DNA of 64,000 bases from Anadara kagoshimensis. Lineage: Eukaryota; Mollusca; Bivalvia; Arcoida; Arcidae. Shown here in pieces: positions 17,101-62,851 of the stretch. A program made the position numbers and the translations under genes. The notes beneath the pieces were generated by a model, which was given only the letters and a program-made list of their open reading frames with translations, had not been told where the DNA came from and did not search any database. The DNA is taken from assembly GCA_021292105.1 (NCBI GenBank), contig CM037874.1, forward strand, positions 53,550,540 through 53,614,539. Direction: 5' to 3'. How positions within the stretch are numbered: position 1 is the first letter of the stretch; every line of letters starts with the position of its first letter.

Positions 17101-20100
17101 GGTTCTTTTTTGGTTGAAATATGAAGCAAAGGGACTTAAAACACTGGTCATAATGGACAGGTGGTCTTTATATAGAGGTTATTTTTAGTTGAAATACAAA
17201 GCAAAGGGACTTAAAACACTGGTCATAATGGACAGGTGGTCTTTATATAGAGGTTATTTTTAGTTGAAATACAAAGCAAAGGGACTTAAAACACTGGCCT
17301 TAATTGACAGGTGGTCTTTATATAGAGGTTCTTTTTTGGTTGAAATATGAAGCAAAGGGACTTAAAACACTGGTCATAATGGACAGGTGGTCTTTATATA
17401 GAGGTTATTTTTAGTTGAAATACAAAGCAAAGGGACTTAAAACACTGGTCATAATGGACAGGTGGTCTTTATATAGAGGTTATTTTTGGTTGAAATACAA
17501 AGCAAAGGGACTTAAAACACTGGTCATAATGGACAGGTGGTCTTTATATAGAGGTTATTTTTAGTTGAAATACAAAGCAAAGGGACTTAAAACACTGGTC
17601 TTAATGGACAGGTGGTCTTTATATAGAGGTTATTTTTGGTTGAAATACAAAGCAAACGGACTTAAAACACTGGTCATAATGGACAGGTGGTCTTTATATA
17701 GAGGTTCTTTTTGGTTGAAATATGATAATATAACTGCACATAAATCTTTCAATAATGATATTGGGTTTTTAAAACTTTATACAGGATCTGCCAAAAATAA
17801 AAACAAAACATAATTTTACAGTCAACCCTGTCTATAAAGGCCACCCAAGGGAACCAGTAAAAGTAGCCTTTATGGACAGGTGGCATATGTATACAGGTTC
17901 AAATAATATGAATAAAGAACAATTGGGATACAATTCTACTGGCCTTTATAAGCAGGTCGATGTTATATAGAGTTGGCCTTTGAGACGTTTCACTGTATGT
18001 GGCATTTTATTGTTCTAAATTTTAAAATAGCAAAAGTATGTGGTCCAAAATTTAATATCACTATGACGACTAGATCACACCGACAATACAAGTAGTTGAA
18101 GTACACTAAAGTTAAGTGTTATATTCATCTTACAAAGAAGTAAATCAAAATAGCATTATATATATATATACCTAATTTGCATAATTAATTAATATCTTAA
18201 GGTACATCAGCGTTTTGAGTTGTGCCATTTAAACTTCTAAAAATAATACAAAAACGTCACAATTATTCAGTATATGTCACAGAAAATTTATCACATTACT
18301 CTGTCTTGATGGTAAAGGCACTGTTAGTGCAAGTAGTTGAATTAAGTGGAGTGACAGGGTTCAACATTAACCCATGTCCGACAGACAATATCGGGTGTCG
18401 GGTAAAAGTCTGGGCAGCCAGGTGAGAACTTTAAACTGGCAAATTAGCGTTATCAGGGTTTCGATTATTACTCATCCACTCGTCCTGACGAGTGAAATGT
18501 GTACTGGGACGAGTATTGTTGTTATTGCACTCGTCACGTTGCCGAGTTAAATTTATCAGACATATACATCATGGGCTTGTTACAATTAATAAACAGCAGA
18601 CAATTTAGTGTAGGTCTGGAAGATCGTGTATAAGGAGGTTAATTGTCGACCTGGGCCCCTTTGTAAAAATCATGCCGTTCTGTAAATTGTTACAAGTGTG
18701 AATCAACAAAATTTTTGAACATTTGCATCATATGTGCAAACCGTTTCGCATTCGGTAGTCATTTAGTGTAACGTAAAATCCAACTGATGTTCCGAGTGTT
18801 TATATATTTGTCAGTGGTCTGTAAAAGTACAGTATGTTAAAGACAATATTATCTTTTACACTTGTGGTAACTGTGCCGAGTTAAATTTCCAAGTGCCGAG
18901 TGGTTTTCTTATTAAACTAGGCACTGTGCCAAGTGGAATTAAAAATTCTATCTAAGGCCTGGTTGTCATGAACTTATACCAGGAAAGTGAGGTCGGGTAC
19001 TCAGAAGGGTAAGCACCTCCTGTTTAGCTAGCTACATCCACCAACAATGCAATCAGTGAAGTATGAAAAATGATGAGATAAAACACATTTGTCATGACTT
19101 TTCTGAGCTAGTAGAATTTAGTTCAGGGTTAGTAAAAAATTTCAGAACTAGCCTGACTGGTCTAGTCTTTAAAAATCATTGTGATGAACCCTGAGTGTGT
19201 TGTTTTTTGTCTCAGTCAGGAGTATTTCACTTATCGTAAATCAAGGTGGGCAGTTCAGGGTTGATGGAAGAAAATGGAGTACCTGCCAGTCCCAGAGAAA
19301 ATCAGTGACTTTAGGCACACAAAGTGACTTACTCGCATGTTAACTTGAGGTCAGTTTCAATCAAGATGTTGTTGAAAGGTCATTCTGTGAAATCATTAAT
19401 TTTTTTGTTGTGTTCAATTTTCGAGGTTTTAAGAAAAAAATTGTGGTTTGTGATTACCATGTTAGTTAGGTTTGTTATATATATATATATTTTGTATTTC
19501 ATTGACATGTAAATTAATAGGTCAGGTTATTCAGGAGAATAACGAAAATTGGGACATCATGAAAATGAATGAATTCACAGTATAAGTAATTTTTTGTAGA
19601 GTTAATGGAGGTAAAGATAAGATAGTTTGTTCTGAGCCTAGTTTCACTATCATTCCTTAACTAAGATTTTACTTAACTTAAATCTGGCAAATTTCAAACC
19701 ATTATGATTTTGTTAATTGTTAAGATATTTGGGAAATGTAAGGTGTCATATTAAAGATTTCCATCAAGCTTGTGCCATCTGCTTTTAGTTTTCACAAAAA
19801 TATTTATTCGTAGTTCCAAAAAGAGCTTGTCAAAATTTTTTTTTTTTTTTTTTTTTTTTTTATTCTTTTTCACTGTTTTACACGTATATATAATATAAAG
19901 ACATATAATTAACAGTTTTACATAAAAACAAACTTATATTCACACACTCATACAAAAACATATTTCAATAATATAGTTAAGGACACTGTTCAAATTGTAA
20001 ACTAAGAGAAAATAAAAAAGTCTTTTTTATTTTTTAAGTTACATTTCCATTTCATGTAACAGACCCCATTTCTTCAGAAATTTACCATACTGAAATTTTA

Positions 20101-26100: not shown

Positions 26101-29100
26101 CCAGCCCAGTATGCAAGTCTTTGTGGGCAATTTTATCAACAATATCTCACCGACCGCAAAAAACGTGCAGCATGGCCGGCACCGGAAACGGAAGTCCGAG
26201 CTTGTCAAAATTAGCTAAATTTAAGTTCAGGAAACTCTTAGTTAAGGAATGATGTTGAAACTATAGGGCCTATTCATATAAAGTTAACAAATCTTTTACT
26301 TTATACACTTGTAGAGAACACAACCAGAAGCGGAGAGGAATTATTATGAATCACAGTTAATTATCTTAGACACATTGGAACAAGTTCTTAATTCAGTAAG
26401 TATTGGTACTCATATTTATATAGAAGGTGTGATGTCAAACCTTGTCCAGGTTTGATTTTAAATCACAGTTAATTATTTTAGACACATTAGCATAGGTTCT
26501 GAGTTCAGTAAGTAATGGTTCTTTTATTTATATGTGAGTTTTAATTTATAAGATGATATTATAGGCATTTTAGCACAGATGCTAGTCATCTGTAGAACAC
26601 AAATTTCTGTGTTAAAATTGCCCCTTTCATAGTCCTGTTGAGTGTGAGAAATGGCTGTTTCTCTTAAACTTGATCATGCTTTTCAACTGCCTCTTTCATA
26701 GTTTTTTTAGTGTGAGAATTGATTTCTACTACTCTTTGATATGATGAAGTCTGTTGCAATGTTTATCTTGTTCTGTTCAGTATTAATTTATGTATATATC
26801 TTTTATTTGTTATTTTTAGCAACCCAAAGATACATCAAGGTTAGATGAAGCTCTGTATGTAAAGTTATTACTGCCAGAAATTTGTAAGGTAAGTCTATAG
26901 ATCAAAAACTTTTACTTTTATGAAAATGGAGGGGATGAAAAAATTAAAGGGTCTGGATTGTAATTGTTGTCATGCAAATAACATAAATATGCTTTGGGGT
27001 GGGGTGGGGGGTCTATAAGAACATTTGAAAGAAAAAGGAAGATGCTTTTTAAACTACAACCAATAGTTATCTGAAATTTGACCAGTCAAATACCGGTTGT
27101 AAAGACAGTAATTTCTCAGTAAATGTCTTAATATTAGTATCAGTGTGTAAAAACATTTCCATCATTGATTCATTAAGCAATATGCTTGACTTTTTCTTGT
27201 TTCTTTTTTTGTAGTTTCTGAACCAGAACACTGGTAATGATAACCCTCTGGTGCTTCAGTTGAAGAATCTGGCATCTAAAGTACTGTTTGCACTTAGTCT
27301 GAATAATTTTACTGCTGTCTTCAATAGAATCTCTGCCAAGTAAGTATAGTCTTAATGCTTAAAGACAAAAATGTCTTGTATGACAATAAGAGAAGTGCTG
27401 TAATGGAGTTTTACACTCCAGTCAAGATGCGTTATTAAGATACAGATAGCTAATGCCTGAAAAGTTACCGAGATATGAATAGCTCTTGCCAACAGACCAA
27501 GATATGCTGTCAGGACTAATTCATTTGTTCAGCGTTCAACTTTCTACAGGTCTGTACTGTAGCTTGTGTGAAGTACAGAAGAACAAAAGTTCTGTCTCAA
27601 GTTTAGTGTTATTTAATGGATTTCAAACCTAAGTAGTGACTAGTGAGGGACGCTGTATTATAAGTCATCAAGCACCAATGAAATCAATGAAATTGAGATA
27701 AGAAGTCGCGTTAGCAGCAGTGAGACTAGAACAGACTAAATTTACTTAACAGAAAGAAAACAGACAATGGTTTTAACATCATTTGAAATTATCTTACAGG
27801 AGTTTTGTATGATTTACTAATGTATATTTTAATATTTTTCAGATTAACAAATTTGGCTGGGGTTAACGATGATCAAATAGATTTGTCAGACTTAGAACTC
27901 ATACAGCATATAAATGTGGACATGCTCAGACTTATCAAATTACTAAATGGTGAGTTAGATATCAGTGCCGATGGTGATGGTATAGGGGGATGGTGGGTAT
28001 GTGTGTGTGTGTGTGTATGTGTGTGTGTGTATGGGGGGGGGGGTTGGTTAACAATGATCAAATAGATATATCAGATCTAGAACTCGTACAACATATAAAT
28101 GTGGACATGCTCAGACTTATCAAATTACTAAATGGTGAGTTGGTTATCAATGGTCATGGTGGTGGTGATTGTAAACGAGGGTGGTGGTGGTAAGGGGATG
28201 GGGAGTTAATGATGATTAAATACATTAATAATTTTATCAAGACTTAGAACTCATACAACATATAGATGTGGATATGCTCAGACTTATCAAATTACTAAAT
28301 AGTGAGATGTCATTGGGCGTGGTGGTAACGGGAGGGGGTAACAATGATCAAATACATGTAGATTTATCAAGAATTATCAGACTTAGAAATCATGGTGTTA
28401 TCCATGCAACATCTTATAAATGTGGATATGTTTAGACATATAATTTACTAATTTGTGAATAAGTTATTACCAATAATACTTTGACATTGTAAATATGTAT
28501 AAATGTGCCCTCTGCTCACCTGCATGAAGTGCAAAAAGGCTATTGTTTTACCCATAACCATCTGTTTTTTCTTTTTCAGAAATTGTATCTAAGTTTAAAT
28601 TACTCAAGTCAAAACAGCTGATTATAAATCTGGCATTCAATCTAGAAAAGGTAAGGATTATGACAGCAGGAAGAAATTTTAACGCTGAATACTATTTACA
28701 TTCATTACATTGCATTGTATTTAGATACATGTAGTAATTGCTCAAAGTAATAATTACAATACTTGTTATTTAAAGCTTTTATCCATTTCTTATGAGGGGC
28801 CAAATCGTCTAAAGTGCAATCACAGTGCCTCTCCACCTAGATTGCAATCCATTTCAGAACAGATCCTAGTGTGAGACAGTTTGTCAGTTCTCTTGCTGGA
28901 GGTCTGTGGTTTTCTCAAGACATTCTGGTTTTCTCCACCATCTCAAATATGACCGCCTTGATATAAATTAAAGAACCCTGGCAAGTGTGTAAAACATTAT
29001 TACTCTATTTTCCACTCCTTTGATTGCCTATAAAATTTTTAAAAACAATGTAATACTTAACCATTGAACTGTCTAGAAATGGCGTTTATAGTGCTATAAC

Positions 29101-32100
29101 TGCCATTGCCGTGCAAAGCAAACTGAATAATGCACGTTTGCAGTTATAGCAATATAAATATCATTTCTAGACAGTTCAATGGTTATATTTACATTTACCA
29201 TTTTTTTTAAGATATTTTGGTATTTTAATCCTAAAAAAACCTTAAAAACACTGTCGTGTACGACATGTGTTTCCAATCGCTGGAACAGCCAATCAATGAC
29301 GTCACGCGTATAGCGGCAAGGAAGAAATGAGTGATGTCACATTAGCAATGGCATTTATACTCCTATAACTGCTATCTGGTCTTAAACAAAGTTTAATACA
29401 TAAAAACATCACAAATGTAAATATAAGTTAATATGGTATAAGAGTGCAGAAACATTGAAGGGAACCTGTATGTTATTGGTAATTACCAGTACTTCTTGTT
29501 TTCAGGCAATATGGAACTGGATGGATAATTATCCAGAAGAATTTACAGATTTACAGAAAAAACCAAATGATGATTTACAAGGTTTGTTTTGTTAATTTAC
29601 ACAATTGTCCACCGTATTAGTCTTAATTAGAAGCTACCTCAATTGGTAGAATCCAGTTTAGGAGCCAGGTTTGGTCTAAAGTGTGCACTTAGGGATCACA
29701 GGACCAATTACCGCCTCAGGTTGCTCTAATATGAAAAAGTTTGTCATTTGGTTTGCTGAAGTTCTTTCACCATCTTAGTTTGAATCCCATTCACCAAAAT
29801 CTTAGTGTGAAAAAGTTTGTTAGTTCCCTAGCCAAAAGTCAGTGGTTTAGTCAAGGTATTCTGGTTTCCTCCGTTAGCTCATTGCTTAAGTATTTATTTT
29901 TGCAATGTCATCTATAGCTTATGGTCATAAAAAGATTTTGGCATACAATCATTGTGAGGGTTTGAGACAGGGTCAAGGTTGATATCCAATTTTCGTTAAA
30001 AAGCTTTACTTTTCTTTCAGCTGTTGTTCCATACATTAAATTCAACATCTTATTATAATTGAGATGCAATGTAATTTTGACTAGGATGTGAAACCTTATT
30101 CAATCATTTAGTTAATGTATCAGTCAATTGATTTTGTAATTTATACATTTTTGTTGACTGATATTTTTGTGTTGTATATTTTCAGATTGCTGTGACAAGC
30201 TGTTTGAGCATTTTATTTTATCTCTGGAAGGGTCAAGGAAGAGAGCTTTATTATGGTCATTACAAATGATGTTACTTGTCATGTGCCCAGTAAGTGGTCA
30301 TCATATCCTCAAATTTCTTCTGAAATGTTTCATATGTTGTCATGGCAACATTAATGTTTTATTTTAACCCTAAAAAATTAAAGTTATGGTCAGTACAAAT
30401 TATGTTACTTGTTGTGTCCAGTAAGTGGTCATCATATCCTCATCTTTCTTAATTGCACCATTGTATATGCTGTCATGGCAACAAGATTAATGTTTTATTT
30501 TAACCCTGAAAATGTCAAGTTATAGTCGATACAAATTATGTTACTTTTTATGTCCATTAAGTCGTCAAAAATGCAAATACTGTTAAAATAAAAAAATCAT
30601 ATTTATTTTTCATGGTGTCCAATTCCCGTAGTTCTAAAAAAAATTGTAAAGCCATGGTTATGGAGAATACATGCATATAAGGTTATCACTGTATTAAATT
30701 TCAGTTTTAAGTTTGATTATTTCTGTTTTCTTGTAGAAAATCTTGGAAGAAATCAACAATGCAGATTCTGGTGCCCCTTGTTCACCTCAGCATATTAAAA
30801 AGGTATGTAAAACATTACATTAACAGTCATGCATACTGTATAATCATGCACTTGATGTTTTAAGCTGAATATCTATTATTTAAATGGAGTTTGCCAATGT
30901 ACGATGTGATACCCCATAACATTTCTGCGTTTTCAGTCAATGTTTTCCTGTAAAAATGAGGTTATTCCAGGAAATTTCTTCATTTCTTCAAGTAAAAGGT
31001 CAGGGGTTCAAAAGCTGCTCTTGACCTTTTACATTATATTTTTATTTACAGAAACATTTTATTGATTAGGTGAAAAAGGCAATATCTAGTCACCATGGCA
31101 ACAAAACATGCTGCAGGAATATTAACATTTGTTTTCGTTTGTTATTTACAGAAACATTTTATTGATGAGGTGAAGAAGGCGATATCTAGTCACCATGGCG
31201 GCAACAAGAACATGTTGCAGGAATGTGCTGCAGTCACATGTGTCCGGTTGTGTAAAGCTTCAACATATATCAACATAAACGACAGACTTAATGTACTGTT
31301 TAGTCTGGTACAGTCTGTCATCAATGATCTCAAGGTAAGTTGCCACTCCCATCTTCTCTTCCCCTCTCTTGCTCTCTCTCTCTGTATTTCTCACATCTCT
31401 CTTTTCTCTCTTCCCCTCTTTCTCTCTATATTTCTCTATTTCTCTCTATATTTTTCTCTCTCTTTTTCTCTTTTTTTCTTTCTCCCCTCTATTCTTTTCT
31501 CTCTTCTCCTAACTTTCTTTTTTCACCCCCTCCTCTCTGAGTTAGTTATCTCTTCTTTTCTTTATTTCTTTTCCCTCTTTTTTCCCTGTTCACCTTCATT
31601 CATTTGGCCATTGGAACAGTCCAAATGCTCTACTGCAGTAATGAAACACAAAAGATAAAATCATTATACAAAGTATAGCTGGGCTACTGATATAAATTTA
31701 TAATGATATTCTTAAGATGTCTTAGTATTAATTGATATAACAAAACTGTTAAAATAATTACTAAGTGAATTTTGAGGGAAATATTAAATGTATTACAATT
31801 ATAGGGTAAACAACCCTCATAAATGTAAGGAAACTAAACAACCGGGTGAACCCTCATAAATGTAAGGAAACTAAACAACCGGGTGAACCCTCATAAATGT
31901 AAGGAAACTAAACAACCCTCATAAATGTAAGGAAACTAAACAACCGGGTGAACCCTCATAAATGTAAGGAAACTAAACAACCCTCATAAATGTAAGGAAA
32001 CTGTAAAACTTTAACTTAGTTTAATTTGAGGGAAATGTTAAATATATTTTATGGTAATCATACCGTATGTATGTATGTTGTGACTTTTATTATGTTTTTT

Positions 32101-35100: not shown

Positions 35101-38100
35101 TGACCTTCAAATGGGTCCATTTAAAAGGTTTTGATTTGAAAATTTTGGAACAGATACTGAGCTAACAGAATTGTGACCATCAAATGGGTTCATGTAAAAA
35201 ATTTTTGATGAAAACAATGCTTTTAAAGACTTCTGTTTCTGTTGTAATGTTTTGGCAACATTATATCTATTTATAGAATCAAGGAAAACCAGGACACGAG
35301 ATACAGAGTAGTACACTGGAGTTAATGAATGGGTTAGTGTCGTTAGTACATCAACAATGGATGCCAGATGTAGCACAGGAGGCCATGGAGGTACGTTTTA
35401 AGCATTTTACAAAGATTCTAAGACACACATACGCACACATATGCACACATATGCACTTGGTCATATACATGCAAATAGACTTGTTTACACATAACTAATT
35501 TTCCATTAATTTGTGAAAATGTAATCCTTTTTAAAGCAATTTTTAAAAAAAATTGTTACAAGAAGTTATATTTTGAAAGAAATTAATAGCCAGTGGTGAT
35601 TTTGGCTATCAGGAAATGAAACATAGGCAAATCATACACATACACACAAAGAGACACAGTCTGACACACGCATGCCAGACCTGTTCTTACACAAAAAACC
35701 TTACACATGAAATATAAACATTATACTTCCAAACATTCTGAATACACATGCAAACACAAACATGAATCTACACATGCAATTTCCTACACAAATACATCTC
35801 TCAAAGAACCTAAAGCATGACAAGTTCCTGTGTTACATACAAAATATCACTAACTACTCAAATAAGTTCAAATACCACTTGAGGCAGATCCTAGCCTGAG
35901 AAAGTTTGTCAGTTCACATGTCAAAGACCTGTGGTTTTCTTTGGTCACTCCAGTTCCCTCCATCCTTGAACTGACTGCCTCAATATAAGTGAAAGCTTCT
36001 TGACTGGGGCTCAAAATAATTATTCCACTACTTAAAGACATAATATTTGATCTTTCATTGACATTTTGTTTCAGTCTCTGTTGTGCTTACATCAACCAGA
36101 GAACATAGAACTTTGGAATCCAGAATCACCAATCAACACTTTCTGGGATGTCAGGTAAGTATTTTAAACAAAACTTTGTCATTTACTGTAAAGCTATAAA
36201 TTTTTGTGTCAATTAATTTTCATGAGATAAAACATTTTCTTCTGTTGTATATTCTTGTGAATTTTTGTATCATCAGATGATAGCTACATGTAATTTAATT
36301 AAAGCTAAAAATTGAACATAAATATTTGTGATAATTTTATTTTTTCATTCTGATACCAAAGAAAACCTGAACTTCATTGAATTAATCCTCTGTTGACAGG
36401 AGTCTTGGTGACTGAGTGGGTTAAAGTGCTTCTAGTCACTAAGGTTCAAATCCCACATGGGCAGATTCTAGTGTAGGAACGTTTGCCAGTTTACTTACTG
36501 AAGGTCGGTTGTTTTCTCCAAACACTCCAGTTTCCTAAACCCTCCCATAACTGACTGCCTCAATATAAAAGATAAAAATCTTGGAATAGGGTGTAAAACG
36601 CCATTTCTTCACCACATTCTTCTTTTCATTAAAATAAAGAAAATATTCAATGGAGTTCGCCAGCATACCACATGATCAATACCCCTTAACATTTGTGCGG
36701 AATGTTTTGGAAAACGTTTACGTCGACAATTTCCCATTGTAACATCATTTTTACAGGAAAATGTGAACTGAAGCGATTTTATCTCCATTGGAAATGGAGA
36801 AATGTTATAGGGTATAACCTGGTACATTGGTGACCCACATTGTGTAACTAAATTTAAATTTCTGGTCTCATTTGTTTTATCTTTGTTTCAGTTCCCAGGT
36901 GCTGTTTTCCATATCTCAGAAACTGATACAGAGACAACTGATCAATTATACAGAGATATTAAAATGGTTACGGGACATACTCGTGTGTAGGAACAGCTTT
37001 CTACAGAAACACAGTACCAATGCTAATCTAGGCAATAACAAAACTATATGTATACATATCAAACTAGAGGTAAGTGCTCAGAAGTTGTTATGGTTACGGG
37101 ACATACTCATGTGTAGGAATAGCTTCCTACAGAAACACAGTACCAATGCTAATCTAGGCAATAACAAAACTATATGTATACATATCAAACTAGAGGTAAG
37201 TGTTTAGAAGTTGTTATGGTTACGGGACATACTCATGTGTAGGAATAGCTTCCTACAGAAACACATTAACAATGCTAATCTAGGCAATAACAAAACTATA
37301 TGTATACATATCAAACTAGAGGTAAGTGTTTAGATATTGAAATGGTTACGGGACATACTCGTGTGTAGGAATAGCTTCCTACAGAAACACAGTACCAATG
37401 CTAATCTAGGCAATAACAAAACTATATGTATACATATCAAACTAGAGGTGAGTGCTTAGAAGTTGTTATGGTTACGGGACATACTCATGTGTAGGAACAG
37501 CTTTCTACAGAAACACAGTACCAATGCTAATCTAGGCAATAACAAAACTATATGTATACATATCAAACTAGAGGTGAGTGCTTAGAAGTTGTTATGGTTA
37601 CGGGACATACTCATGTGTAGGAACAGCTTTCTACAGAAACACAGTACCAATGCTAATCTAGGCAATAACAAAACTATATGTATACATATCAAACTAGAGG
37701 TAAGTGTTTAGAAGTTGTTATGGTTACGGGACATATTCATGTGTAGGAATAGCTTCCTACAGAAACACAGTACCAATGCTAATCTAGGCAATAACAAAAC
37801 TATATGTATACATATCAAACTAGAGGTAAGTGTTTAGAAGTTGTTATGGTTACGGGACATACTTGTGTGTAGGAACAGCTTTCTCCAGAAACACAGTACC
37901 AATGCTAATCTAGGCAATAACAAAACTATATGTATACATATCAAACTAGAGGTAAGTGTTTAGATATTGAAATGGTTACGGGACATACTCGTGTGTAGGA
38001 ATAGCTTCCTACAGAAACACAGTACCAATGCTAATCTAGGCAATAACAAAACTATATGTACACATATCAAACTAGAGGTGAGTGCTTAGAAGTTGTTATG

Positions 38101-41100
38101 GTTACGGGACATACTCATGTGTAGGAATAGCTTCCTACAGAAACACAGTACCAATGCTAATCTAGGCAATAACAAAACTATATGTATACATATCAAACTA
38201 GAGGTGAGTGCTTAGAAGTTGTTATGGTTACGGGACATACTCATGTGTAGGAATAGCTTCCTACAGAAACACAGTACCAATGCTAATCTAGGCAATAACA
38301 AAACTATATGTATACATATCAAACTAGAGGTGAGTGCTTAGAAGTTGTTATGGTTACGGGACATACTCATGTGTAGGAACAGCTTTCTACAGAAACACAG
38401 TACCAATGCTAATCTAGGCAATAACAAAACTATATGTATACATATCAAACTAGAGGTGAGTGCTTAGAAGTTGTTATGGTTACGGGACATACTTGTGTGT
38501 AGGAACAGCTTTCTACAGAAACACAGTACCAATGCTAATCTAGGCAATAACAAAACTATATGTATACATATCAAACTAGAGGTAAGTGCTAAGAAGATCT
38601 GAAAATAAAAATTTGACTTAGTGCTTAACTCTTTGACTTCCAATTTTTTCAGGAAATGTACTCCATACCAAATTTATTTTGAATAAACATTTTAATCAAT
38701 ATTTGTTGGTAATTGTTATGAACTTTTCAGGATATTATGTTTATTAATTACTTCGGTATATATGAAAACATATCCCATATAGTAAACAAAGAGCGCTTGC
38801 TTTGTCCACAATTTACACAATCACAGGTGAGACAGGTAGATGCTCAGGTAAAAATAATTAATTGTAGTATAATTGTGGTATATTACCTGCTAAAATAATG
38901 TACCAATGTATGGCATTCATGTCAGTAAAGCGTACATTGCTATGACTTTCTGCTAAGATCAGGCTTCTTTAGTATGTAACTAGAAATAGGGGTCCTTGTA
39001 ATTAAAACCTGAAAGGAATATATCCGTTCTATCATGAGATATGAATTCTGGGACGTGAAATGGGTTTGCTGACTAATGGACATTGGGAATGAATTTTAGG
39101 AATCTGTTAACATGTCGCCGCAGGATGCATCAAAATAATTTGTGCAGTCCGGCGAGCTAATCTTGTTATTCTGAATAATTATATTTATATGATCTGACAG
39201 TTTCAACTCAGATTCTGAAACAGAAATACATGTAGTTACCACGTGGTATATGAGTGAACCTAATTGTCTAGCAAAAGAATTAACATTGTATTCTTCATTA
39301 CAGGTTGTATTCTTCATGTATTTATGGAGCATTGACATAGATGCTGTGTTAACGGCTATGTCATGTTTCCACTTGTTGTGTGAGGAGGCAGACATAAGAT
39401 GTGGAGCTGATGAAATGGCTGTAACACAGTTATTACCTAACTATAATGTGTATGCTGAGTTAGCTCAAGCCAGTACAGTTCTTACTGTCGGTCAGTATAT
39501 ATATTAGTTATTAGAATTCCTACTGTTTAACTGTGAGATGGTATTTACTTTGGTGTTCATTAATTTTGAGTGAGTGAGTGAGTGAGTGAGTAATGGTGTT
39601 TAGCATCCCAGTCAAGAATATTTCACTTATATCGAGACGTCGCCAGCTATAGGCAAAGGTGCAGAAATTTTGCCTGTGCGTTGCGCTGATGGCATTATAC
39701 AGCAGGGTTCTTTATCGTGCCAAGCCGGCTACCAAGACACGGGACCTCGTTTATTTTAAATTCTCATCCGAAAGAGCCGTGACTTTCATTTCGTAATGCC
39801 GAGTGCTTGGTGAAAGAACAGTCACTACCCACTTTTAAGTCTTTGGTCAGACCCGGCCGGGGTTCGAACCCAAGACCTCCCACTTACGGAGCGAACACTC
39901 TACTAACTGAGCTACAGCAGTGGGTAAAGATATATGATTTTAATATATATTAATTTAATATATATTAATTTTGACAAAAAGTCACAATGATATATAACAT
40001 GATACAAATTTAATTTATTTTCATATCTAAAAGTCTGAAAATTATGTTCTCAGCTGGTACTATATTAAAGAGTACCCGTCCCACCTCAATAATATCATGT
40101 TTTTATTTGCTGTGTCAGGGGCAGATATTAGGTGTGGAACTGATAAAATGGCAATTACACCTAACTACAATGAAGAATTAGCTCAAGCCAGTACAGTTCT
40201 TACTGTTCTTACTATATTCACTTGACGTTATTAGAATTCCTGGTCTGTCCCCTACCACCCCCCACCCCTGCCCCTCATCTTCAACCATATCAGTTTTCAC
40301 CAAATGGGGTTCACCAGTGCTCTCTGGTGTGTACTTACACATTACACATTCTATAACTAATATAATGAGTAATTCTTGTTTATATACATATACCTTACTT
40401 ATTGAACTTCCATGATTATTGTTTCCTAGGACGAGCTGCTTTACAGAAGAGAATTATGGCTTTACTGAGGAAAACTGACCAGTATACCTCTGGAAACTCA
40501 CAGGTAAACTAATTACATTGGTTCACATATCATAATGCTATATTGGATAATTACAGTATATCATTAATGTTCATTAACATTTTGTAGTTTTATATTTTTA
40601 AAAAATTATGTTAGGGGATGGGGAGGGGCAGTGATTTTGTTTGGCTAAATTAACTACGGAATACATGTAGATTCACCGAAGGAAAAATTGACTGAGATTT
40701 CTTAATTTGAACATTAAAATTCCCAAAACAAAATTAATTCTAGTTGTCTGTCACCACAAAATACCAAATATTGTCAAAATACAACATTATTGCAATGAAG
40801 ATCTTAGCTATTATTGGAAACATGTCAAAATGCATTTTGCTATACATGTACATGTATTTTATAACTTCAGTTTTCCCAATCTTATAGGCAGAAGGCAATT
40901 TTAAAAAATATATATATAACAAAATCACCGAGGGGTTGGGAATTTTGTGAAAATTTTGTGGAATTGTGTTCAGTTTTGTGTACGTTTAGGATCCTAATGT
41001 TCTATGATGTACATTTTAAACCTGTCAATAAATAAAACAAAAAACTTGTATTTTTTATTATTTTAAAGGCATGGGACGACACATTTAGAAACTGGGAGGT

Positions 41101-44100
41101 GATAACTCAGTACTTAGAAACATATCCCAAAGATCCCAAAGTGAAAGCCGAGGACAGTACTCAAGCAGGAAGTCTTAGTGATTCCATACGCTTGTCAAAA
41201 CGTAAACCTCCCCATCACGCTAATACAGTACATGAACTTGAGGTGAGTTATATGGTTGTCAAAATGTAAACCTGTCTATTATGGTAATATTTACACATAT
41301 ATATGTGCTTATATCCTGTGCTGTGTTTAAGTTTATTTAATGTCATGATTGATAGCCATTTGTGAAACCCCACTGACCGTGTGTAAGAAAGGGTTATTCA
41401 TTGCCATTACAAAAGGTTTTACAGATTTACAGGTCAAGTGTAGGCATGAGTCCTCTGACAAATATATATACAAATGTATATGTGTGTGTGTGGCTTCTTA
41501 GAAACTTTTTAAAGAGGTAGGGAGTTTGAACTAACAACTCTTGACTTCAAATACCAAGGTATATCACTGTACCAAGTCAACCACTATCACCATGATATTT
41601 ATATATGTAGTAGAGAGAGATCTTGATGGCTGAGTTGTATAAAGTGCATACTTACAATCACAGCACCACCTACAGAGTGGTGCCATATATATTCGGACAC
41701 TTTGTAAAATCCTTCTTTATTTCATATAAAACCATATATTTTTAAAAAATTCTCAAAAATTTATTTCTTGGTCAGTTTTCATGATTTTTTCACCGTTAAA
41801 TGTAAAATTTGTTGAAGTTTTTCTTAAAAATAATTAAAAAAACCAATTTCTTTGTTTTTAATAGATAATCATTTAAAATTCAACGGAAAATTTCTAAAAT
41901 TGAAATCTACTATATAATCATGCTTCACATGGCTGTTAAAAATTACAATGCTGTTCAGCTTATGTTTTCTTGACTGTTATAAGACGGACAATATTTTGAA
42001 CATTATTGGAAGAAACTACAACTAATTTTTCATTAAAGGATGAAAAAAATCATGGAAATTGACCAAGAAATAAATTTTTGAGAATTTTTTAAAAATATAT
42101 GGTTTTATATGAAATAAAGAAGAATTTTACAAAGTGTCCGAATATATATTACACCACTCTGTAAGTTCAAATCCCGCTTCAGAGAGATCATAATGTTAGA
42201 AAATTTGCCAGTTTGCTTGCTGAAGGTCATGGTTTTAAGTGAAAAAAAATCTTGATTTGGTCACAAAAATTCATTACTCTGCAGCTCTACTCTGTATAGT
42301 AGACCTTTCTGTATTGCGAATGAAGAATGCATATTGAAACTTTGAAAGGACAATATTCATTTAACAAAATTGTTGATTTTTTTTACAGGATCAGTTAAAT
42401 GAGTGGGCCAACATGACAGGATTTTTGTGTTCGTTAGGTGGAGTAAGATTACAAAGCAGACCTCAGAGAATAAGGTAAGTGACCCCCCAGAGAATAAGGT
42501 TGGTGATCTCGGGGAATTAGATAGGTGAATTTTACAAATGGAGATTCCATTGCATAATGTAATATGCCATCGCATTTGTATGGAACTATTTGTGGATATA
42601 GCGTACCATAAGTTGGCCTTTTACATAAAAATGACATTTCCAGAAATATGTAATGTAAATCTTTTCTATATTTTTTTTGCACAAATTTTATTGAGTTGAT
42701 CACACATGTTGACAAACCCCATTCCAGAGGATGAACTTTTATAAAACATTTTTAAGTTAGATTAGATGGAGTTGTGATTGTAGACTTTTTATCATACAAC
42801 CTGGTACTGTGTATCTTTTTATAAAAATGACATAGGATTAAATAAATTAAAAAGCATTTTCATTTTTCAGTTCAACATCTTTACCATCAGGACTAGATTC
42901 CAGAAAGAGCAGTTTAATGCAGAGTTGTGCACCAGATTCACAGTATTGTCCTGTTACTGTGTAAGTATAATTAAATTAATACCAAAAACTTCTGGGGGGT
43001 TATATAGCAATCACCTTATCTGATCCTGTTTTTCTGTCAGTCATTCCTTCTGTCTGTCCATTTACCTATGTATATATGTACAGTCAAACCTGTCTAAAAA
43101 GGCCACCCGAGGGAACCAATAAAATTTACCTTTATTGGCAGATGGCCCTTATATACAGGTTCAAATAACATGAAAAAAGAGCAATTAAGATAAAATTTTA
43201 CTGGCATGTATAAGCAGATGGCCCTTATATACTGGTTTAAATACATGTACCATGAATAAAGAGAAATTATGATAAATTTTTACCACCCTTTATAAGCAGG
43301 CAGGTAGCCCTTATATAGAGGTGACCTTTATGGAAGGCCGACCGATATCAAGTGTTATAAGATAGCATCTTCATACATGTACTTTTTAAGGCCCTTGACA
43401 AGCTTATAGGTCATATTCAGGCAACATACAGCATTTAAAAGCCAGGAACAACAGCCTTTTATATGCAGTTATGCCCCTTTTAAACAATTCAGGAATGAAA
43501 AATATTTGAAATATCATTTTTGAAATGTGAAAAGATAATCTTAAACTATATGTATAGAGATAAAAAAGGACTTTGAGTTATTTATAGAACAATTATGTAC
43601 TTTGATTAATTTTTTTTTAATTTTCAGGTTCATAAGCAACTTGTTAAAGTTGTTGATCTGCCAGAATGAGAAGTTTGGTGCTCAAATACAGAAACATGTT
43701 AAAGAATTGGTTGGACATGAATTAAACTCAGCACTGTATCCCATATTGTTTGACCAAATCCGGATCTGTGTTGACAAATTCTTTGACCCATCAGGACAAG
43801 TAAGATGTTATTTAGGGATAATCTCAAAGTTAATAAAGCATTAAAATCTGTTTAAGGCCTTATCAAGCTTGAATTCAACCCATTTTGTTTTCCTCTATCA
43901 GGATCTGTGTTGACAAATTCTTTAACCCATCAGGACACATTAGATTTTGTGTAGGATAGTAAATGTTTAAATCTGTCTTAATATAAAAGCAAAGGGACTT
44001 TCAAACACTAGTCTTAATTGACAGGTGTTCTTTATACAGAGGTGGTTAAGAACATAATAACAGGTGATTAAGTGTTTTACATAACTACAGTTGAATCTCG

Positions 44101-52500: not shown

Positions 52501-55500
52501 TGATTCATTCTTCAAATAGGTCAGGTGTATGTTGGATCTTGATCAAGATGGAACCAAGATTTGAAAATGGCTAAAAACTGTTTTTTACCAAGTACTTAGC
52601 TTTAAAACTTAAAGTCATGGCCTCTACAGATGAGAGTGTTAAAATTATTCTGATGGCTAAACTGATTGGAACTGCTCTTTACTGCAAGCATGCTATAATT
52701 TGTGGGGCCTTCATGTCTTAGTGGTCTAACCTGTGTGTTTATGGATCATGACACCTATCACTGCCTAGGTTTGGATCCTATTTTGGCAGATTTTAGTGTT
52801 AGAAAGTTGATCAGTTTTGCTTGCTGAAAGTATGGTTCTCTCTAGGCACTCCAGTTTCCTCCATAATTCCAGAACTGACCACCTCAAAATAAGTAAAGGG
52901 ATTTTAACTGGTAGGTAAAGCACTATTACGCCACTTCACTCCACCATCTCAAAACTGACCACAATAATATAAGGGAAAGAATTTTGACTGGGAAATAAAA
53001 CAACATTACTGTACTTCGCTCTCTCAATCTCCTCTAGAATTTGCCATATGTATACAGATAAAAGGTAGATAACTTAAAACTTTGAAATTTTAAATGGCGC
53101 AAAGTCATCTCTCAGTCTCAACCAAATTATATATTGTTACTTGAGTCACATGTGCAATTATTCAATTCAACGTATATAAAATAAATGAAAAATATAAATT
53201 TTAAAATTTAATTGATAAAAATCATAAACATACAAGACACCAATGATTGGAATTTTTTATTGGTAAAAATAAAACGTTGAATATATAAATATAAAACACT
53301 CCACTGATTGGATTTTTTTATCAGTAAAAGAAAAAACTTGAAATACATTTTCATTTGTGTTTGTTTAGGAGATTTACTTGTAAACTTTCTGTAATTTTAG
53401 GTTGAGATTGCCGACTGTATGCAGACATTATTTAGAGGTAACAGCTTAGCCAGTAAGATCATGGCATACTGTTTCCGGTTTTATGGCCAGAACTATCTGA
53501 GAGAACTACTTAATCCACTTATAATGGAGATGTGCTTTCTAGAGAAGACCCAAAATGTTGCTTACGAAATTGACCCCTCAAGGTAAGGTTATCTCTCGAT
53601 ATAAATACAATTGGTTTTTTTTTAACTGCTACAAATGACTTACTTACTTTGGACTTTGACTCCCATTGGAGCTTAGGCCATTGACAAACTCTCTCCAGCT
53701 GACTCTGTTCTGTGCAAGTTTTTCTATGCCTGGCCAGTTGTATCTTCTCTGTTCCATGTCCAAATTAACACAAGTGTTATTTATTTGCTAGTTGGTTCTG
53801 GCAATGAGTGGAAATATATACACAATGTGTATTATAAAATTTTAGCTTCATTAAGGGTTGCACATCATTCAAGCTGACTCGCCAGGCAGTGATTTAAAAT
53901 CAAGCATCTTGAAACATTCTGTATCAATTTCGACTCAAAATAGCTTCGCTGTTTTGATAAAAGACAACATCTTCCCAATCTTGGCTGAGGTAGAAGTCAC
54001 TTCTCCCTATTTCAAAAATCTATTTTGATCCCTTGAATGGTAGAGAAAGCAAGAGTGTCTAAAGAAACCAGCAACATTCAGCAAGCATTTCACACCTTAT
54101 CATCTTCTTGACTGGCATTCAAACTATCATAGTGACAGGTGGTGTGATCCATAAGCCAGCACCTTAGACTGCTAGACCACTGAGACCCAAACTGACACTG
54201 AGAGGGGCTTTGATCCATAAGCCAGGGCTTTAGTCCACTAGCCCACAGAGGTCTTGAGTAGAAATGTAGTAGTTAGATTTCTGGCTCTGTCATCTTTATT
54301 AATGATAAGTTTTTATGTTGTTTTGATATTTTCCAGGTTGGAAGAAGGAGAAAACATAGAAAATAATAAGAAATATCTGATGATTATAACACAGAAAGTT
54401 TTCAATGCTATAGTCGGATCTGCTCAAACGTACGTATAACATTTCATTACCTAGATCTTTGATTTTGTTATGACATTGCTTCAGTTTCCATAATTACATA
54501 TTGATACGGAAAGTTGAAGCAATTAGCTAATTTGGTAAAGTGTTGATTCCAGACCTTAGCTAGTTACTTCATTTGGCATTGAAAATCAGAAATTAGAAAT
54601 TGAGTCTAGTGACACACAATATGGTAATTTAAAATCTAATTGGTGTTCAGATCAGGAATAAAAAATTGACTCATTTGATGTAATTTACAATCGGTGTGTT
54701 TGATACTGGAAATTTAATTTAAATATATTAATTCTTTACAGGAATCTGATAAAAAAAATTAAACTGCAATAACAAGTAAAGTCTATGACACTGGACCAAG
54801 TGTGAATTAAATTCCACTCACAACTGTTCTGTTTCCACCTTCATCAGTAATTTAAATTGGTCACATGACCAGATTAGTATATGCTATAACGCTCATTGTA
54901 TCCAATTTAACACCCCAATTTTGTTTTAAGAAAAATTTGATGTACAAGTGTATACATTTATTATTTTTTATTTTAAAACGACGTGTTAAAACTGTTCAGT
55001 TTTTGCTAAGATTTTCTTTGGTAGATTCTGAAGGACGTTTATATTTTTTATACCTCAGTCATGGATATAACAATACTGTACATTGAGGCAGTCAGTTGCG
55101 AAATGGTGAAGGAAAACCAGAGTGCCAGAGAAAATCACCTACATTCAGAATTCAAACATCAAAATTTCCATACCTCAACTAAAAATAACCTTTATTATAT
55201 AGACCACCTGTCTATAAAGTCATCCCGTTGTGTGTGTGGGGGGGGGGGGGGGGGGGAGCTGTGACCAAATGATCAAAAGCACAAGCACTTACGGGTCCTA
55301 GGGTGGGAAAGTTTTTAGCTCACCTGAGCCAAAGGCTCAGATGAGCTATTGCAATCTATCACCATCACCGTCCGTCGTGTGTAAACTTTACATTTTAATC
55401 TTCTCCTCCAAAACTACTGGGCCAAATTTGATGAAACTTGACGATTATCATGTCTGGGTAACAGCCTTTTAAAATTGTGTTCGGGGTTTGGCCACGCTCA

Positions 55501-58500
55501 ACAAGATGGCTACCGTTTCAATAAGGAGTTTTCTTTAATAAATGTTATTGACCTTTGAACCTCTGCATGAGATATGTACTTAGCCTCAGGTGAGCGTTAA
55601 GGCCCATGGGCCTCTTGTTTAATATTGTTTAAATTATTTTTCTGAAGATCAGTGGTTTTCGCTGTGTTTCAGTCACCTTCGCCACCCAGAACGAACTGCC
55701 TTTATATAAGTGAAAGGATCTTCACTGGGGCATAAAAAATTATCTTTGGTACCTTAGGTGGTCTGTATGCAGGCCTTACTGCATTTTTATGATATATTTA
55801 ATTAATATATATTTATTTTGTTTTCATCTTGTTACAGGTCATTATTTGTTGAAAAGTAATTTTTTTAACATTTCATACATTTCTCTTTAATATGTAAAAA
55901 CTATTCTAAAAATTTATAGAACTTAATTCATTTATATTAAAAAAGTATTTTATTTTGCCCATTTTAAAAAATAATTTGTTATATCTTTACAAATAAAATT
56001 ATATATATATATATATATATATATCTACATATATTTTTCTGCTTAAATCCTTTACATGTTTTTCCCCTTAAAATTAAATTTTTTCTGAGATTTCAATATT
56101 ATTATAAACCGTTTATTATCTTATTTTTTAGCTCCACTGGCTATAGCCAGCTGAACTTATTGCATGGTGAAGCATGTGTGCGTCCGTAAACTTTGACTTT
56201 CTCCTCAGAAATCACTGGGGCAATTGAAACCAAATTTGGTGTGGAACGTCTCTAGATGGAGCATATCAAAGTTTGTACAAGGCAACCCTGTACAAAATCC
56301 TAGATGGCTGCCATTACTATAAATACTGTAGCAAAACCACTAAAATTATTATTGTGCATTCAATTTTCCACCGATTTTCTTCAAATTTGAAATATAGGAA
56401 GTAGATACCTAGCCATTTAATATATACAACGGGGTTTTCCTGAGAAATTTTTCATTGACCTTATTTTAGCAAATTATGCAAATTAGGTCAAATCTTGCCA
56501 GTTGAGCATTACAGGCACTTTTGGGCCTCTTGTTTTTTTAATTTTCAGTAAATTTAAATTCCTTTTTGTATTTTTACATATTTTTCCTTTTATGTTATTT
56601 ATTTTTCATTGAAACATAAACAATTAATCTAATTAAGTATTTCTTTTTAAATTATTGTATTATTTGTATATAGATTTCCGCCAAAACTTGGTGTCATGTG
56701 CCATTGTGTATTCCAAGTGATCAGCCTTCGATTTCCACATGACAGCGTGTTAGCGACGGGAACAGTGATATTTCTGCGTTATTACAACCCTGCATTAGGT
56801 AAAGTCGATCAGGCTGTGGTCTCCAGAACGTTGTTGATCATCGTTCATCATCTTGACACGTAGGAATGGTCCCAGGCATCCAGGACATCTTGTACACCAC
56901 CTGTTTTATTTATTATCATACCTTTATACTGTTGTCTCTTGGATCTTAATACAACAGCCAGATTGTATAACCTTCAAGTAATGTGACAATGCTCAATTTG
57001 ATGGGAGGGGGGAGAGAGAAACAAAACAACATAAAAACTACACCGTATCTTGTTACCGTAATTTTAATATTGCATTTTTGGCATACAAAAGTGACAAAGT
57101 GTCAAACACTTTAAAAATATGTTATATTAATATACAATGTAATTAAAAACCAGAATTTTAGAAAAAAAAATCTCCCATTATTTGACATGAGTAATTTTGG
57201 TGGTTGTGGTGTCAAGATATTGCTTGTCTTACACCACCTGTGTGAGACAAGATACATATGTCATATGAGATGATTTGTAATTGGCATGCTGTAAATCTTG
57301 TATATAAAGACCAACTGTATATATGGACTTTACAGATGGATAGTGTTTTGTTGAAATTTGAAGTAATAAGAACCATTAAACACTGGTATGAAATAATGGA
57401 CTGAGAGATTTTGTCATATCTAAGTGCTAAGGTAGCAGCTATCATTTTTGAATACGAGTCAAAAAAAATTTTCAGTTTCTATCGGTTTCTTAGTGTCCAT
57501 CTTTTTTGAGAAAAAAAATTATCCATAAAGGGCAAAACATGCATTTTTCTGATTAATAGTAAAAAAAGATGACAAATTCCTGAAACCATAAGCATTGTCA
57601 CATTACTGAAATGCTATGTAATATAGAAAAATGACCAATAAGAACTAATACTTTTTTATATTTTTTTTCTATATTTGCAGCCTGAAAACTAAATGGTAGT
57701 CGATAATTTATACAACTGTTTTCAAATCAGTCATGTGATGTTTTTAATATCAATTCTACATAAGATTATTCAAAATAAATGACTATCTTGTTATGAAAAT
57801 ATCCAATAATAGGAATTACTTTTTTGATGATATTGATATAAAAAATATCAAATATAATTACTTTTTGATGATGTTGTTAGGAATATCCAATATGATGACT
57901 ATCTTGTTGACATACTATAATAACCACTCTGTTTGTGACAGTGAAATACTCCTTATATCCATAGAAAATATCAAATAAAATGGAATAAAGATTGATATTT
58001 TTCACTTACTTGTACCTAGTCATAACAGGAAATCTGTATGCACATCCATGATTGTCATAACATATGTCTGTAGAAAGGAAAATGTTGGCGTTATGGGGAT
58101 TTTACATGACAAAAATGGCGATGTTTACACCAGAAGTGACGTCCTTGTTGATGTTTTACATCATATGTGCAACAGAATCCCCCATTTGCCTGGTTTTCCA
58201 ACATGTTAAATCCCCATTGTGTTTACCATGTGCAGATATATTCTGGGCTAATTGCGGATATGCATACAGATTTCCTGTTACGACTCGGGTACAAGTAAGA
58301 GAAAAATATCAATCTTTATTCCATTTTATTTGATTTTCTATGGATATGAAGAGTATTTCACTGTCACAAACACATTGGTCTCTACAGTAGTTACAAAAAT
58401 ATAGAATATAGCAACTTGTCTTGATCATACTGGTATAAAACTGCATCGTAAATTATATATAATTATATATATATAAGCATAATCTGTACTGTCTAAATAA

Positions 58501-60564: not shown

Positions 60565-60769
60565 GTAACGCTGTATTCCACAAAAAAAATATAAAAAAAT
60601 TGTTAGATGTGGTTTACGTTTTAACGCTGATGCTGGTGTGAATTACCTTCCCTTCCTTCTCTGAGTACTAATGATATTGGTTCTAATATTGTTTTTGATT
60701 TTATTGAAAAAGATATCATATCGGTAATTTTTTGTTGTATTCACTCATGTGGTATGTGAACAATTTTAG

Positions 60770-61275
60770 ACTCGAGTGTAAAGAGACTGAAACTTGGGTG
60801 CCAAGGGACTAAAATATCGGAGACTTTGGTATGAAGAGACAGAGAGATGTGAAGTGACCAAGACTGAGTCTTGGTGTGAAGTGACCAAGAATTGAGTATG
60901 AAAGCACTGAAACTTTGGACTGAGACAGAGACTTGAATGTGAATTATTGGAGACTTTGGTATGAAGGGACTGAAATTCGGGTGTGAAGAGGTCAAGATTG
61001 CGTCTGGGTGTGAAGTGACCAAGACATGAGTGTGAAGCAACTGAGACTTGAGTATGAAGAGACTGAAACTTGGGTGCTAAGGTTGTGAAATAATTCAAAC
61101 TTTGGTTTGACGAGATCAAGATTTTAAGTGACTAAAATTTGGGTGTTAAGTGATGAAGACTAAGTCCGGGTATGAAGTGACAGAGATCTTAGTGTGTAGT
61201 GACTGGGTCTTTGATGTGAAGTGGCTGAGAATTGAGCATGAAGTGACCAATATTTGAGTTTGAAGATTCTGAGAT
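60770..61275. repeat. Degenerate minisatellite, GACTGAAACTTGGGTGTGAAG type
   Basis: About 20 imperfect units of 20-30 bp (GTGAAGTGACCAAGA, GACTGAAACTTGGGTG). It produces two overlapping repetitive minus-strand ORFs (60741-61040, 60766-61119), which are not genes. Confidence 0.9.
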
Positions 61276-61319
61276 AAAAGATGTTTCCATGCCTAGTCAC
61301 AAAGCTTTTCACTTCATAC

Positions 61320-61480
61320 AAATGCCACTTGGGCAGATCTTAGTGTGAGAAAGTTTGTCAGTATGCTCGCTGAAGATTCGTGGTTTTCTCTGGGCACTTC
61401 AGTTTTCTCCTCTACCAGTTAGTAATTGTCTGTATATAAGTAGAGGAATCTTGACTGGGGCATAAATTATCACTATCCCT
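61320..61480 (+). repeat. SINE-like repeat (family D)
   Basis: ACAAATGCCACTTGGGCAGA-TCTTAGTGTGAGAAAGTTTG-TCAG, GGGCACTTCAGTTTTCTCC, TCTGTATATAAGTAGAGGAA-TCTTGACTGGGGCATAAA: one of the cleanest cores. Confidence 0.75.
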
Positions 61481-62851
61481 CTACAATCTCTCGGCTTCCA
61501 TGCACTTCTTTTCAGTACGTAAGGAAATCAGTCTCAAAAATGAAGCTTTGTTTTTAGCTAAATTCAGTTATATATAAATGAGGAACCAATACCATTATGC
61601 CTAGAACTAATGTAGGAACAAGAACTACCTAACGCATATTTGGAACGAACATTGAACTGTAAACCAACTTTAATGTCTAAACGTTTAAACCATCTGTAAA
61701 TCAAGATACATAATTGATTTCAAAGTAAAAAAAAAACAGCAGAAGCAGTGTCACCAGTTGTGTTAGACTGGACACTAGGAAGTAATGATGTTGAAGCCGA
61801 TTTTGTCTGACTGAGTACCAGATAGTAATGATGCCACCACCTGTTTTGCCAGACTGCTCAATTGCTTAGTGATATCATTTTGATGCAGTTTCTAAACGTT
61901 CTTTAGAATCACAAATCCATGCTAGTTTACACACCCTGTAATAATTATCTGTTTCTGTGAGGTTGTTGTACATGTTTTTTACATTAAAATGCCAGGAAAG
62001 AGCAGATTTGTGACATAATTAAATTGCGTACATAAGAAATATTACTGTTAAAAATGGTGCCCCAAAATTCCAAAATTGTTCCACATCATTTCAGTGTGTT
62101 ATTATTTTTACTTTAAAAATTATTAGTAGCCATATTTCCAAAGTTTGTGAAAATATAGTCCTTTTAAAATTTTTTTTTCACAAATTCCAAATTTGCTAAG
62201 CTAAAGTAGGTTACTTTTTGAAATAATTTCTCATTAATAGCCAGTAGCAATTTTGGCAACCCAGGAATGGAAAATATCCAAGGTATATACTTATCCAATA
62301 TAGCAATGACAATTTTGGCTACAGGAATGGGAATTCCTGGGAACTAGTGGTTGTTCTTTTTAAATGGAATTATTATTTGACTTTTAATATAGGGGAAATA
62401 TAAGTTGGTTTACAGTTCTTGTGTACTGACATATGATTGAGCACATTAATTAAAAGTCACCTAACCAGCTTGTTTATTTTAACCATGCATGGATTATGAT
62501 TTCATCACATTTATTAATATGTCCCGTATGGTTGCTATGGTAGTATGACATCACACTTTTTATTTTTAGTTAACTCCTCCTTATCCTAATTAACGTTAAG
62601 GCATTTTGTGGTCTGACTTTTTAAGTTGAACCAACCTCATCTTGTGTGACCAGCTTTATATGGACCAAGATTAGGAAATACAAAATGAAAGCTAAAGAGT
62701 TGTCTCCCGTGAAAGGGACCCCATAAGAAGACCAACTTATGTTTATTATTTTTAAAGATTTTTGTATCTTATTTCAAGACATTTTATTAAAATAATGATC
62801 TGTTTGTTAAGGAGATCTAAAATCTTTGTAAATACGGATTGAAAGCATTGA

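What the first reader, a model, noticed from the sequence alone, without database searches (positions are those of the whole stretch)
56674..60564. Duplicated, frame-enforced mutually exclusive exons in the catalytic RasGAP domain of NF1
Seen: two exons 3.6 kb apart (125 nt and 137 nt) encode alternative versions of one GRD segment (F-P-x-K-L-G ... CHC ... FLR-x-x-NPA). Both are open, have GT-AG borders, enter in phase 2 and exit in phase 1. Each length is 3n+2, so including both or skipping both breaks the frame. Residues are 63% identical to each other (26/41, by eye), too diverged for a recent or assembly duplicate, yet no stop has accumulated. Known: in vertebrate NF1 the regulated exon 23a inserts 21 residues inside this peptide (after CHCLYQ) and lowers GAP activity. 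Inference: this lineage independently uses exon duplication at the same place to make two neurofibromins with different Ras affinity or turnover. 32b keeps FLRFINPAI, while 32a has FLRYYNPAL at the Ras-binding groove. I know of no description of this.
Basis: partly seen in the sequence, partly recalled or inferred. Interest (0 to 1): 0.92.

Follow-up and report, generated by a model that had tools for sequence, protein, structure and literature searches.

The report
Twin alternative exons in neurofibromin gene
An animal's NF1 tumour-suppressor gene carries two old, intact and different versions of the exon that supports the Ras-switching site, arranged so that a protein can be made only if exactly one is used, which suggests a splice switch for Ras control that still needs RNA proof.

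Summary
Exons 32a (56674-56798, 125 nt) and 32b (60428-60564, 137 nt) lie 3,629 nt apart in an NF1 gene that runs from about 11.2 kb to past the window end. Both encode human residues 1357-1397 and can splice in frame from exon 31 (ends 54429) to exon 33 (starts 65321, outside the window); using both or neither gives an early stop. They share 26/41 residues. Codon positions 1, 2 and 3 match at 31, 31 and 17 of 41, and 10 of 13 fourfold sites differ: an old duplicate kept under coding selection. In simulations, neutral drift of one copy since duplication did not reproduce this. No third copy was found in the 1.1-Gb assembly.

Two points were missed. 32b has a four-residue insertion (WTVI, 60513-60524) before the FLR motif, while 32a has canonical spacing but FLRYYNPAL. 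The gene also holds nine partial exon copies and a 13-copy array, so exon duplication is common here; only this pair is complete.

Best reading: mutually exclusive exons tuning RasGAP activity. RNA and relatives could not be examined, and the species is unidentified. The kind is known; the gene and site appear new.

The parts
53401..53582 (+). GRD exon with the arginine-finger segment (TLFRGNSLASKIM); here called exon 30
   Evidence: tblastn with recalled human NF1; junctions
54337..54429 (+). Exon 31, shared upstream exon; its donor AAC|GTACGT is among the gene's weakest
56674..56798 (+). Exon 32a, 125 nt, FPPKLGVMCHCVFQVISLRFPHDSVLATGTVIFLRYYNPAL; canonical spacing, altered residues after FLR
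60428..60564 (+). Exon 32b, 137 nt, FPSKLGSMCHCLYQVVTQRFQQSSVDAVWTVIGTVIFLRFINPAI; canonical FLRFINPAI, 4-residue insertion
60513..60524 (+). 12-nt insertion in 32b (WTVI); resembles the next 12 nt at 8 of 12 places (counted by eye), so probably an old codon duplication
   Evidence: insertion: alignments; duplication origin is inference
56799..60427 (+). 3,629-nt intron between the two exons; too long for steric exclusion; holds a common foldback repeat at 57913-58389

Best explanation
Exons 32a and 32b are mutually exclusive, tandemly duplicated exons of NF1. Shown: two complete, intact, homologous exons in the same phase, with lengths that make only single use productive, and a divergence pattern of coding constraint over most of the time since duplication. 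Inferred: one is picked per transcript through weak, regulated splice sites, and double use or double skipping is removed by nonsense-mediated decay. Inferred: the choice swaps the helix that carries the FLR motif and so tunes RasGAP activity. The 32a protein keeps canonical helix spacing but has Tyr-Tyr after FLR; the 32b protein keeps FLRFINPAI with about one extra hydrophobic helical turn before it. I expect both to be GAPs, with different catalytic efficiency or stability.
For: Frame logic and intact splice sites. Codon positions 1/2/3 identical at 31, 31 and 17 of 41 (positions 1+2 against 3, Fisher p 0.0003); 10 of 13 shared fourfold sites differ; dN about 0.27, dS saturated. With one copy neutral since duplication, 0 of 1,500 simulations at each of T = 0.5, 0.75, 1.0 and 1.5 were stop-free with at least 26/41 identity; T of about 0.75 to 1.5 fits the observed third-position identity. 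The 15 replacements are more conservative than neutral ones (p 0.022), as reported for human duplicated-exon pairs (PMC9741552, one Results section read). F1389, L1390, R1391, N1394, P1395 and A1396 are kept in both; R1391A costs about 400-fold in GAP activity (PMC7437355, passage). Donors of exons 31, 32a and 32b each outscore only 1 of 41 other donors of this gene, a cluster of weak sites expected of regulated splicing. Precedents in molluscs: oyster AOX exon 10 (PMC5589949, abstract and passages) and snail NALCN (PMC3557258, abstract).
Against: No RNA evidence of any kind and no relatives to compare. 32a has more private changes than 32b (10 against 3 with human as outgroup, p 0.09). A neutral phase of roughly 10 to 30% of the elapsed time, depending on T, is not excluded. 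The splice signals are not distinctive: 27 of 526 AG sites between exons 31 and 33 score at least as high as the 32a acceptor and 103 of 526 as the 32b acceptor; 40 and 48 of 610 GT sites score at least as high as the 32a and 32b donors. Exon duplication is frequent in this gene, and 6 of the 9 partial copies are also open over their short copied part. No exclusion mechanism was found: the intron is too long for steric hindrance, the sites look U2-type, and none of 18 splice-site/intron pairings reached z of -2 against shuffles.
Confidence: 0.74

Rival explanations
1. 32a was a working alternative exon for most of its history but has recently lost use in this species; 32b is now effectively constitutive.
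For: 32a has more private changes (10 against 3, p 0.09). A neutral phase of roughly 10 to 30% of the time since duplication is compatible with the intact frame. The 32a donor is weak.
Against: The splice signals and frame are intact and the FLR and NPA residues are kept. The donors of 32b and exon 31 are just as weak, and the 32b acceptor scores lower than that of 32a.
Confidence: 0.14
2. One copy serves mainly as a poison exon: including both, or neither, shifts the frame and lowers NF1 output through nonsense-mediated decay.
For: Double inclusion and double skipping both give early stops.
Against: A poison exon needs no protein conservation, yet positions 1 and 2 are far more conserved than position 3 and 32a joins exon 33 in frame.
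Confidence: 0.07
3. 32a is a neutral relic, one of many local exon duplications in this gene.
For: Nine partial copies of eight exons and a 13-copy array lie in the same gene; 3 of the 9 carry an in-frame stop.
Against: None of the nine is a complete exon. They are 72-92% identical to their parents at DNA level, whereas 32a/32b is 79 of 123 identical and still fully open. Neutrality since duplication gave 0 of 1,500 runs at each T of 0.5 or more.
Confidence: 0.03
4. Assembly artefact: the two exons come from two haplotypes or two loci wrongly joined.
For: No reads were available, so it cannot be checked directly.
Against: 64% DNA identity with saturated synonymous sites is far beyond allelic divergence. 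The listing of repeats over 54300-62000 (17 direct families) shows none with the spacing of the two exons. Within the 134 kb examined exons 31 and 33 have no convincing second copy. No other exon 32 turned up in the assembly.
Confidence: 0.02

Closest known systems
Vertebrate NF1 exon 23a (isoform II)
   Same: Alternative splicing inside the GRD that alters RasGAP output; its insertion point (Q1370/V1371) lies inside the peptide swapped here.
   Different: 23a is a 63-nt in-frame cassette that adds 21 residues; here a homologous exon is exchanged, skipping breaks the frame, and there is no intron at the 23a point. The fly GRD lacks these 21 residues (PMC11048932, passages).
Oyster AOX duplicated exon 10 (PMC5589949)
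   Same: Tandem exon duplicate in a mollusc: 41-residue peptides differing at 15 sites, 63.5% DNA similarity in C. virginica, one copy with novel residues beside functional sites.
   Different: Terminal exon with its own stop; one mRNA holds the second copy and the other holds both, so not strictly exclusive in RNA; different gene; demonstrated from mRNA.
NALCN alternative pore exons in snails and other invertebrates (PMC3557258)
   Same: Alternative exons exchange the functional core of a protein in a mollusc (abstract).
   Different: Ion channel; both isoforms were measured in tissues.
Human tandem duplicated exon substitutions (PMC9741552)
   Same: Adjacent homologous exons, conservative replacements, functional residues kept (abstract and two sections).
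   Different: Those are annotated splice events; NF1 has 0 occurrences in that paper (search listings).

Membership tests
Mutually exclusive tandem-duplicated exons | Adjacent homologous internal exons in one gene | tested here: met
Mutually exclusive tandem-duplicated exons | Same entry and exit phase; each joins the shared neighbours in frame | tested here: met
Mutually exclusive tandem-duplicated exons | Intact splice sites on both copies | tested here: met
   All four are GT/AG; both donors and the 32b acceptor outscore only 1 of 41 sites of the gene, the 32a acceptor 6 of 41
Mutually exclusive tandem-duplicated exons | Both copies under coding constraint, functional residues kept | tested here: met
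   from one pairwise comparison, so recent loss in one copy is not excluded
Mutually exclusive tandem-duplicated exons | Exactly one copy per mature transcript | not testable with these tools
   No RNA data; frame logic only
Mutually exclusive tandem-duplicated exons | Pair conserved in related species | not testable with these tools
   No eukaryote relatives held; scans of viral and prokaryote collections gave no relative
Vertebrate-type exon 23a cassette | 63-nt in-frame insert between Q1370 and V1371, skippable | tested here: not met
   No intron at that point; skipping exon 32 gives a stop
Neutral exon relic (pseudo-exon) | Equal divergence at all codon positions, stops or frameshifts | tested here: not met
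NF1 orthologue | Collinear match along the length of neurofibromin | tested here: met
   with a recalled human sequence as probe; exon 32 found only here. RasGAP-domain matches on other contigs were not identified further

The most novel reading that the evidence does not exclude
This lineage independently evolved a splice switch in the RasGAP core of neurofibromin, in the same domain segment where vertebrates have exon 23a. One isoform would be a strong and the other a weak or Ras-selective GAP, set by swapping the FLR helix: canonical helix with Tyr-Tyr in 32a, helix lengthened by about one turn in 32b.
Probability: 0.4. Interest if true: 0.78.

Novelty: new member of a known kind. Interest (0 to 1): 0.62.

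Why it matters
Neurofibromin's GAP strength is tuned by splicing in vertebrates, but the fly protein lacks that exon's residues and no invertebrate equivalent turned up in the searches made here. A second, structurally different solution in the same part of the domain would suggest that animals repeatedly need two grades of NF1 GAP activity. It would also give a natural pair of GRD variants, one with a helix insertion, for dissecting how the FLR helix sets catalysis. It is directly testable with RNA-seq.

Tried and rejected
Species identification by a haemocyanin domain (PF14830): no match and no control rang, so uninformative. Relatives in viral and prokaryote collections: 21 and 47 pattern matches, none encoding a relative. 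RNA pairing between splice-site regions and the three introns: 8 of 18 combinations (stopped by the time limit; 25 shuffles each) and the other 10 (12 shuffles each); none reached z of -2. Steric exclusion rejected (3,629-nt intron). U12 incompatibility rejected by eye only (recalled consensus). TGCATG (Rbfox-type, recalled): 2, 2 and 3 sites in the three introns against 0.5, 1.0 and 1.2 expected, including one at 60318, 110 nt before 32b; suggestive at most. YGCY and TGTKT counts lay within 2 SD of expectation. The hairpin at 57913-58389 belongs to a repeat with many copies (40 scored of 3,857 first-look candidates), so it is not a dedicated regulatory stem. Helix check: hydrophobic moment 0.34 for the human FLR helix, 0.30 for 32a, 0.07 to 0.15 for 32b; a rough index only.

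Limits of the counts. The gene model covers 48 junctions, up to 83.9 kb; the exons from there to 94.5 kb were seen by tblastn only. For splice-site ranking I dropped 5 of the 48 junctions as doubtful and the 2 exon-32b junctions, leaving 41. The nine partial copies leave out a tenth self-match of 28 nt (73454-73481) and the matches starting inside the 13-copy array; 374 self-matches were found in all and only those overlapping exons were printed. The simulations assume equal time on both branches, synonymous change only in the constrained copy, and no indels.

Full report
What is there. The window lies in a 1.115-Gb, 36-contig assembly at C18:53550540-53614539. Splice junctions fitted to the human protein give a model of 48 junctions up to 83.9 kb; the fit asks for an open frame, and 5 of the 48 are doubtful. 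In it, exon 30 (53401-53582) carries the arginine-finger segment, exon 31 is 54337-54429, and exon 33 starts at 65321. The species was not identified. The per-exon identity to human (roughly 35 to 93%) makes a vertebrate unlikely (inference).

The pair. Exon 32a (56674-56798) and exon 32b (60428-60564) both encode human residues 1357-1397. Each alone has neurofibromin as its best PDB hit. Each joins exon 31 and exon 33 in frame; both together stop inside 32b, and with neither there is a stop after three codons of exon 33. Searches of the assembly gave no other exon of this type at E below 1, and a scan from exon 31 to exon 33 on both strands showed none at its threshold.

It has four extra residues, WTVI, directly before GTVIFLRFINPAI. 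The extra 12 nt (60513-60524) resemble the next 12 nt at 8 of 12 places by eye, so an old in-frame codon duplication is likely (inference). So 32b has the canonical FLRFINPAI behind a helix about one turn longer, and 32a has canonical spacing with FLRYYNPAL. Neither is simply 'the human-like one': 32b matches human at 29 of 41 aligned sites, 32a at 22 of 41.

Age and constraint. Codon positions 1, 2 and 3 are identical at 31, 31 and 17 of 41 sites (positions 1+2 against 3, Fisher p 0.0003), and 10 of 13 shared fourfold sites differ. dN is about 0.27 and dS is saturated. I simulated a constrained copy beside one drifting neutrally since the duplication. At each of T = 0.5, 0.75, 1.0 and 1.5, 0 of 1,500 runs were stop-free with at least 26/41 identity; T = 0.3 gave 3% but leaves third positions too similar (mean 26 against the observed 17). 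By symmetry this speaks against long neutrality of either copy. A neutral phase of roughly 10 to 30% of the elapsed time, depending on T, is not excluded. The 15 replacements are more conservative than neutral ones (mean BLOSUM62 0.13 against -0.69, p 0.022). Against equal treatment of the copies: 32a has 10 private changes, 32b has 3 plus the insertion (p 0.09 for 10 against 3).

Splice sites. Against 41 junctions of the same gene, the donors of exon 31, 32a and 32b each outscore only one donor. The 32a acceptor outscores 6 of 41 acceptors, that of 32b 1 of 41, and that of exon 33 14 of 41. This cluster of weak sites fits regulated splicing; it fits decay of 32a less well, because exon 31 and 32b share it. 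It also means that the sites do not stand out: 27 and 103 of 526 AG sites, and 40 and 48 of 610 GT sites, between exons 31 and 33 score as high as those of 32a and 32b.

Background of duplication. This gene is rich in local exon copies. Self-comparison shows nine partial copies of eight exons beside their parents, 72-92% identical in DNA (a tenth match of only 28 nt is left out). Three of the nine have an in-frame stop; the other six are open over the short part copied. A 126-bp unit repeated about 13 times from 36964 to 38596 carries the end of an exon and its donor. None of the nine is a complete exon. So duplication is cheap here; what marks exon 32 is completeness plus survival of the frame at 79 of 123 identical bases.

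How it probably works. The swapped peptide includes the FLR motif. In human NF1, L1390 contacts Ras residue 61 in a KRAS-Q61L complex, R1391 pairs with Ras E63, and R1391A loses about 400-fold GAP activity (PMC7437355, passages). F1389, L1390, R1391, N1394, P1395 and A1396 are kept in both exons, so both proteins may well be GAPs (inference). The neighbours differ: F1392Y and I1393Y in 32a, an extra helical turn in 32b. I infer different catalytic efficiency or stability, chosen by splicing. How exclusion is enforced was not found: not by distance (3,629 nt), and no intron pairing with the splice sites reached z of -2 in 18 of 18 combinations tested. Decay of wrong products is the only exclusion step that the sequence itself supports.

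Comparison with the known. Human exon 23a inserts 21 residues between Q1370 and V1371 and lowers GAP activity up to tenfold (PMC12352984, its sections 3 and 4 read; PMC8580823, passages). That point lies inside the swapped peptide, but 23a is a cassette and this is an exchange. The fly GRD lacks those residues (PMC11048932, passages). Duplicated-exon splicing in molluscs is known for oyster AOX, with very similar divergence (41 residues, 15 differences; PMC5589949, abstract and passages), though there one mRNA holds both copies, and for snail NALCN (PMC3557258, abstract). Eight searches of open full text showed no NF1 or RasGAP case of this kind in their listings (some searches listed 15 of 38, 12 of 213 and 12 of 5,489 papers, one search listed 4 of 5). 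A C. elegans review speaks of gap-2 isoforms made by alternative splicing and start sites (PMC3771449, passages). Subscription papers and transcript databases were not searchable.

Verdict. It is a new member of a known kind at an unexpected and medically familiar site.

Noticed in passing
window 36964-38596: A 126-bp unit repeated about 13 times contains the 3' part of an NF1 exon with its donor; 7 exact GAGGTAAG sites remain, and the reading frame runs open from the exon through the second copy, so the exon could end at either of two in-frame donors 126 nt apart.
   Followed up: partly
window 26455-26533, 28046-28326, 30384-30567, 31039-31120, 40092-40241, 43879-43955; and 72423-72472, 73451-73592 in L002: Partial local copies of neighbouring NF1 exons in the adjacent introns (72-92% DNA identity), several with a splice site at one end; this gene seems prone to short tandem duplications across exon borders.
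   Followed up: partly
window 57913-58389: Foldback, MITE-like repeat between 32a and 32b; 40 copies scored of 3,857 first-look candidates in the assembly, the others 86-89% identical to this one.
   Followed up: yes
window 60757-61274: Degenerate 22-bp minisatellite (TGAAGTGACCAAGA-like) in the intron downstream of 32b.
   Followed up: no
window 17002-17722: 75-bp unit repeated about 9.6 times, 94% matches, in a long intron near the start of NF1.
   Followed up: no
G000 C15:54564505-54566347 and C15:56468000-56469453: Two RasGAP-domain loci about 1.9 Mb apart with nearly equal profile scores, each with one TAA inside the first match; possibly a duplicated RasGAP gene, not compared or identified.
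   Followed up: no
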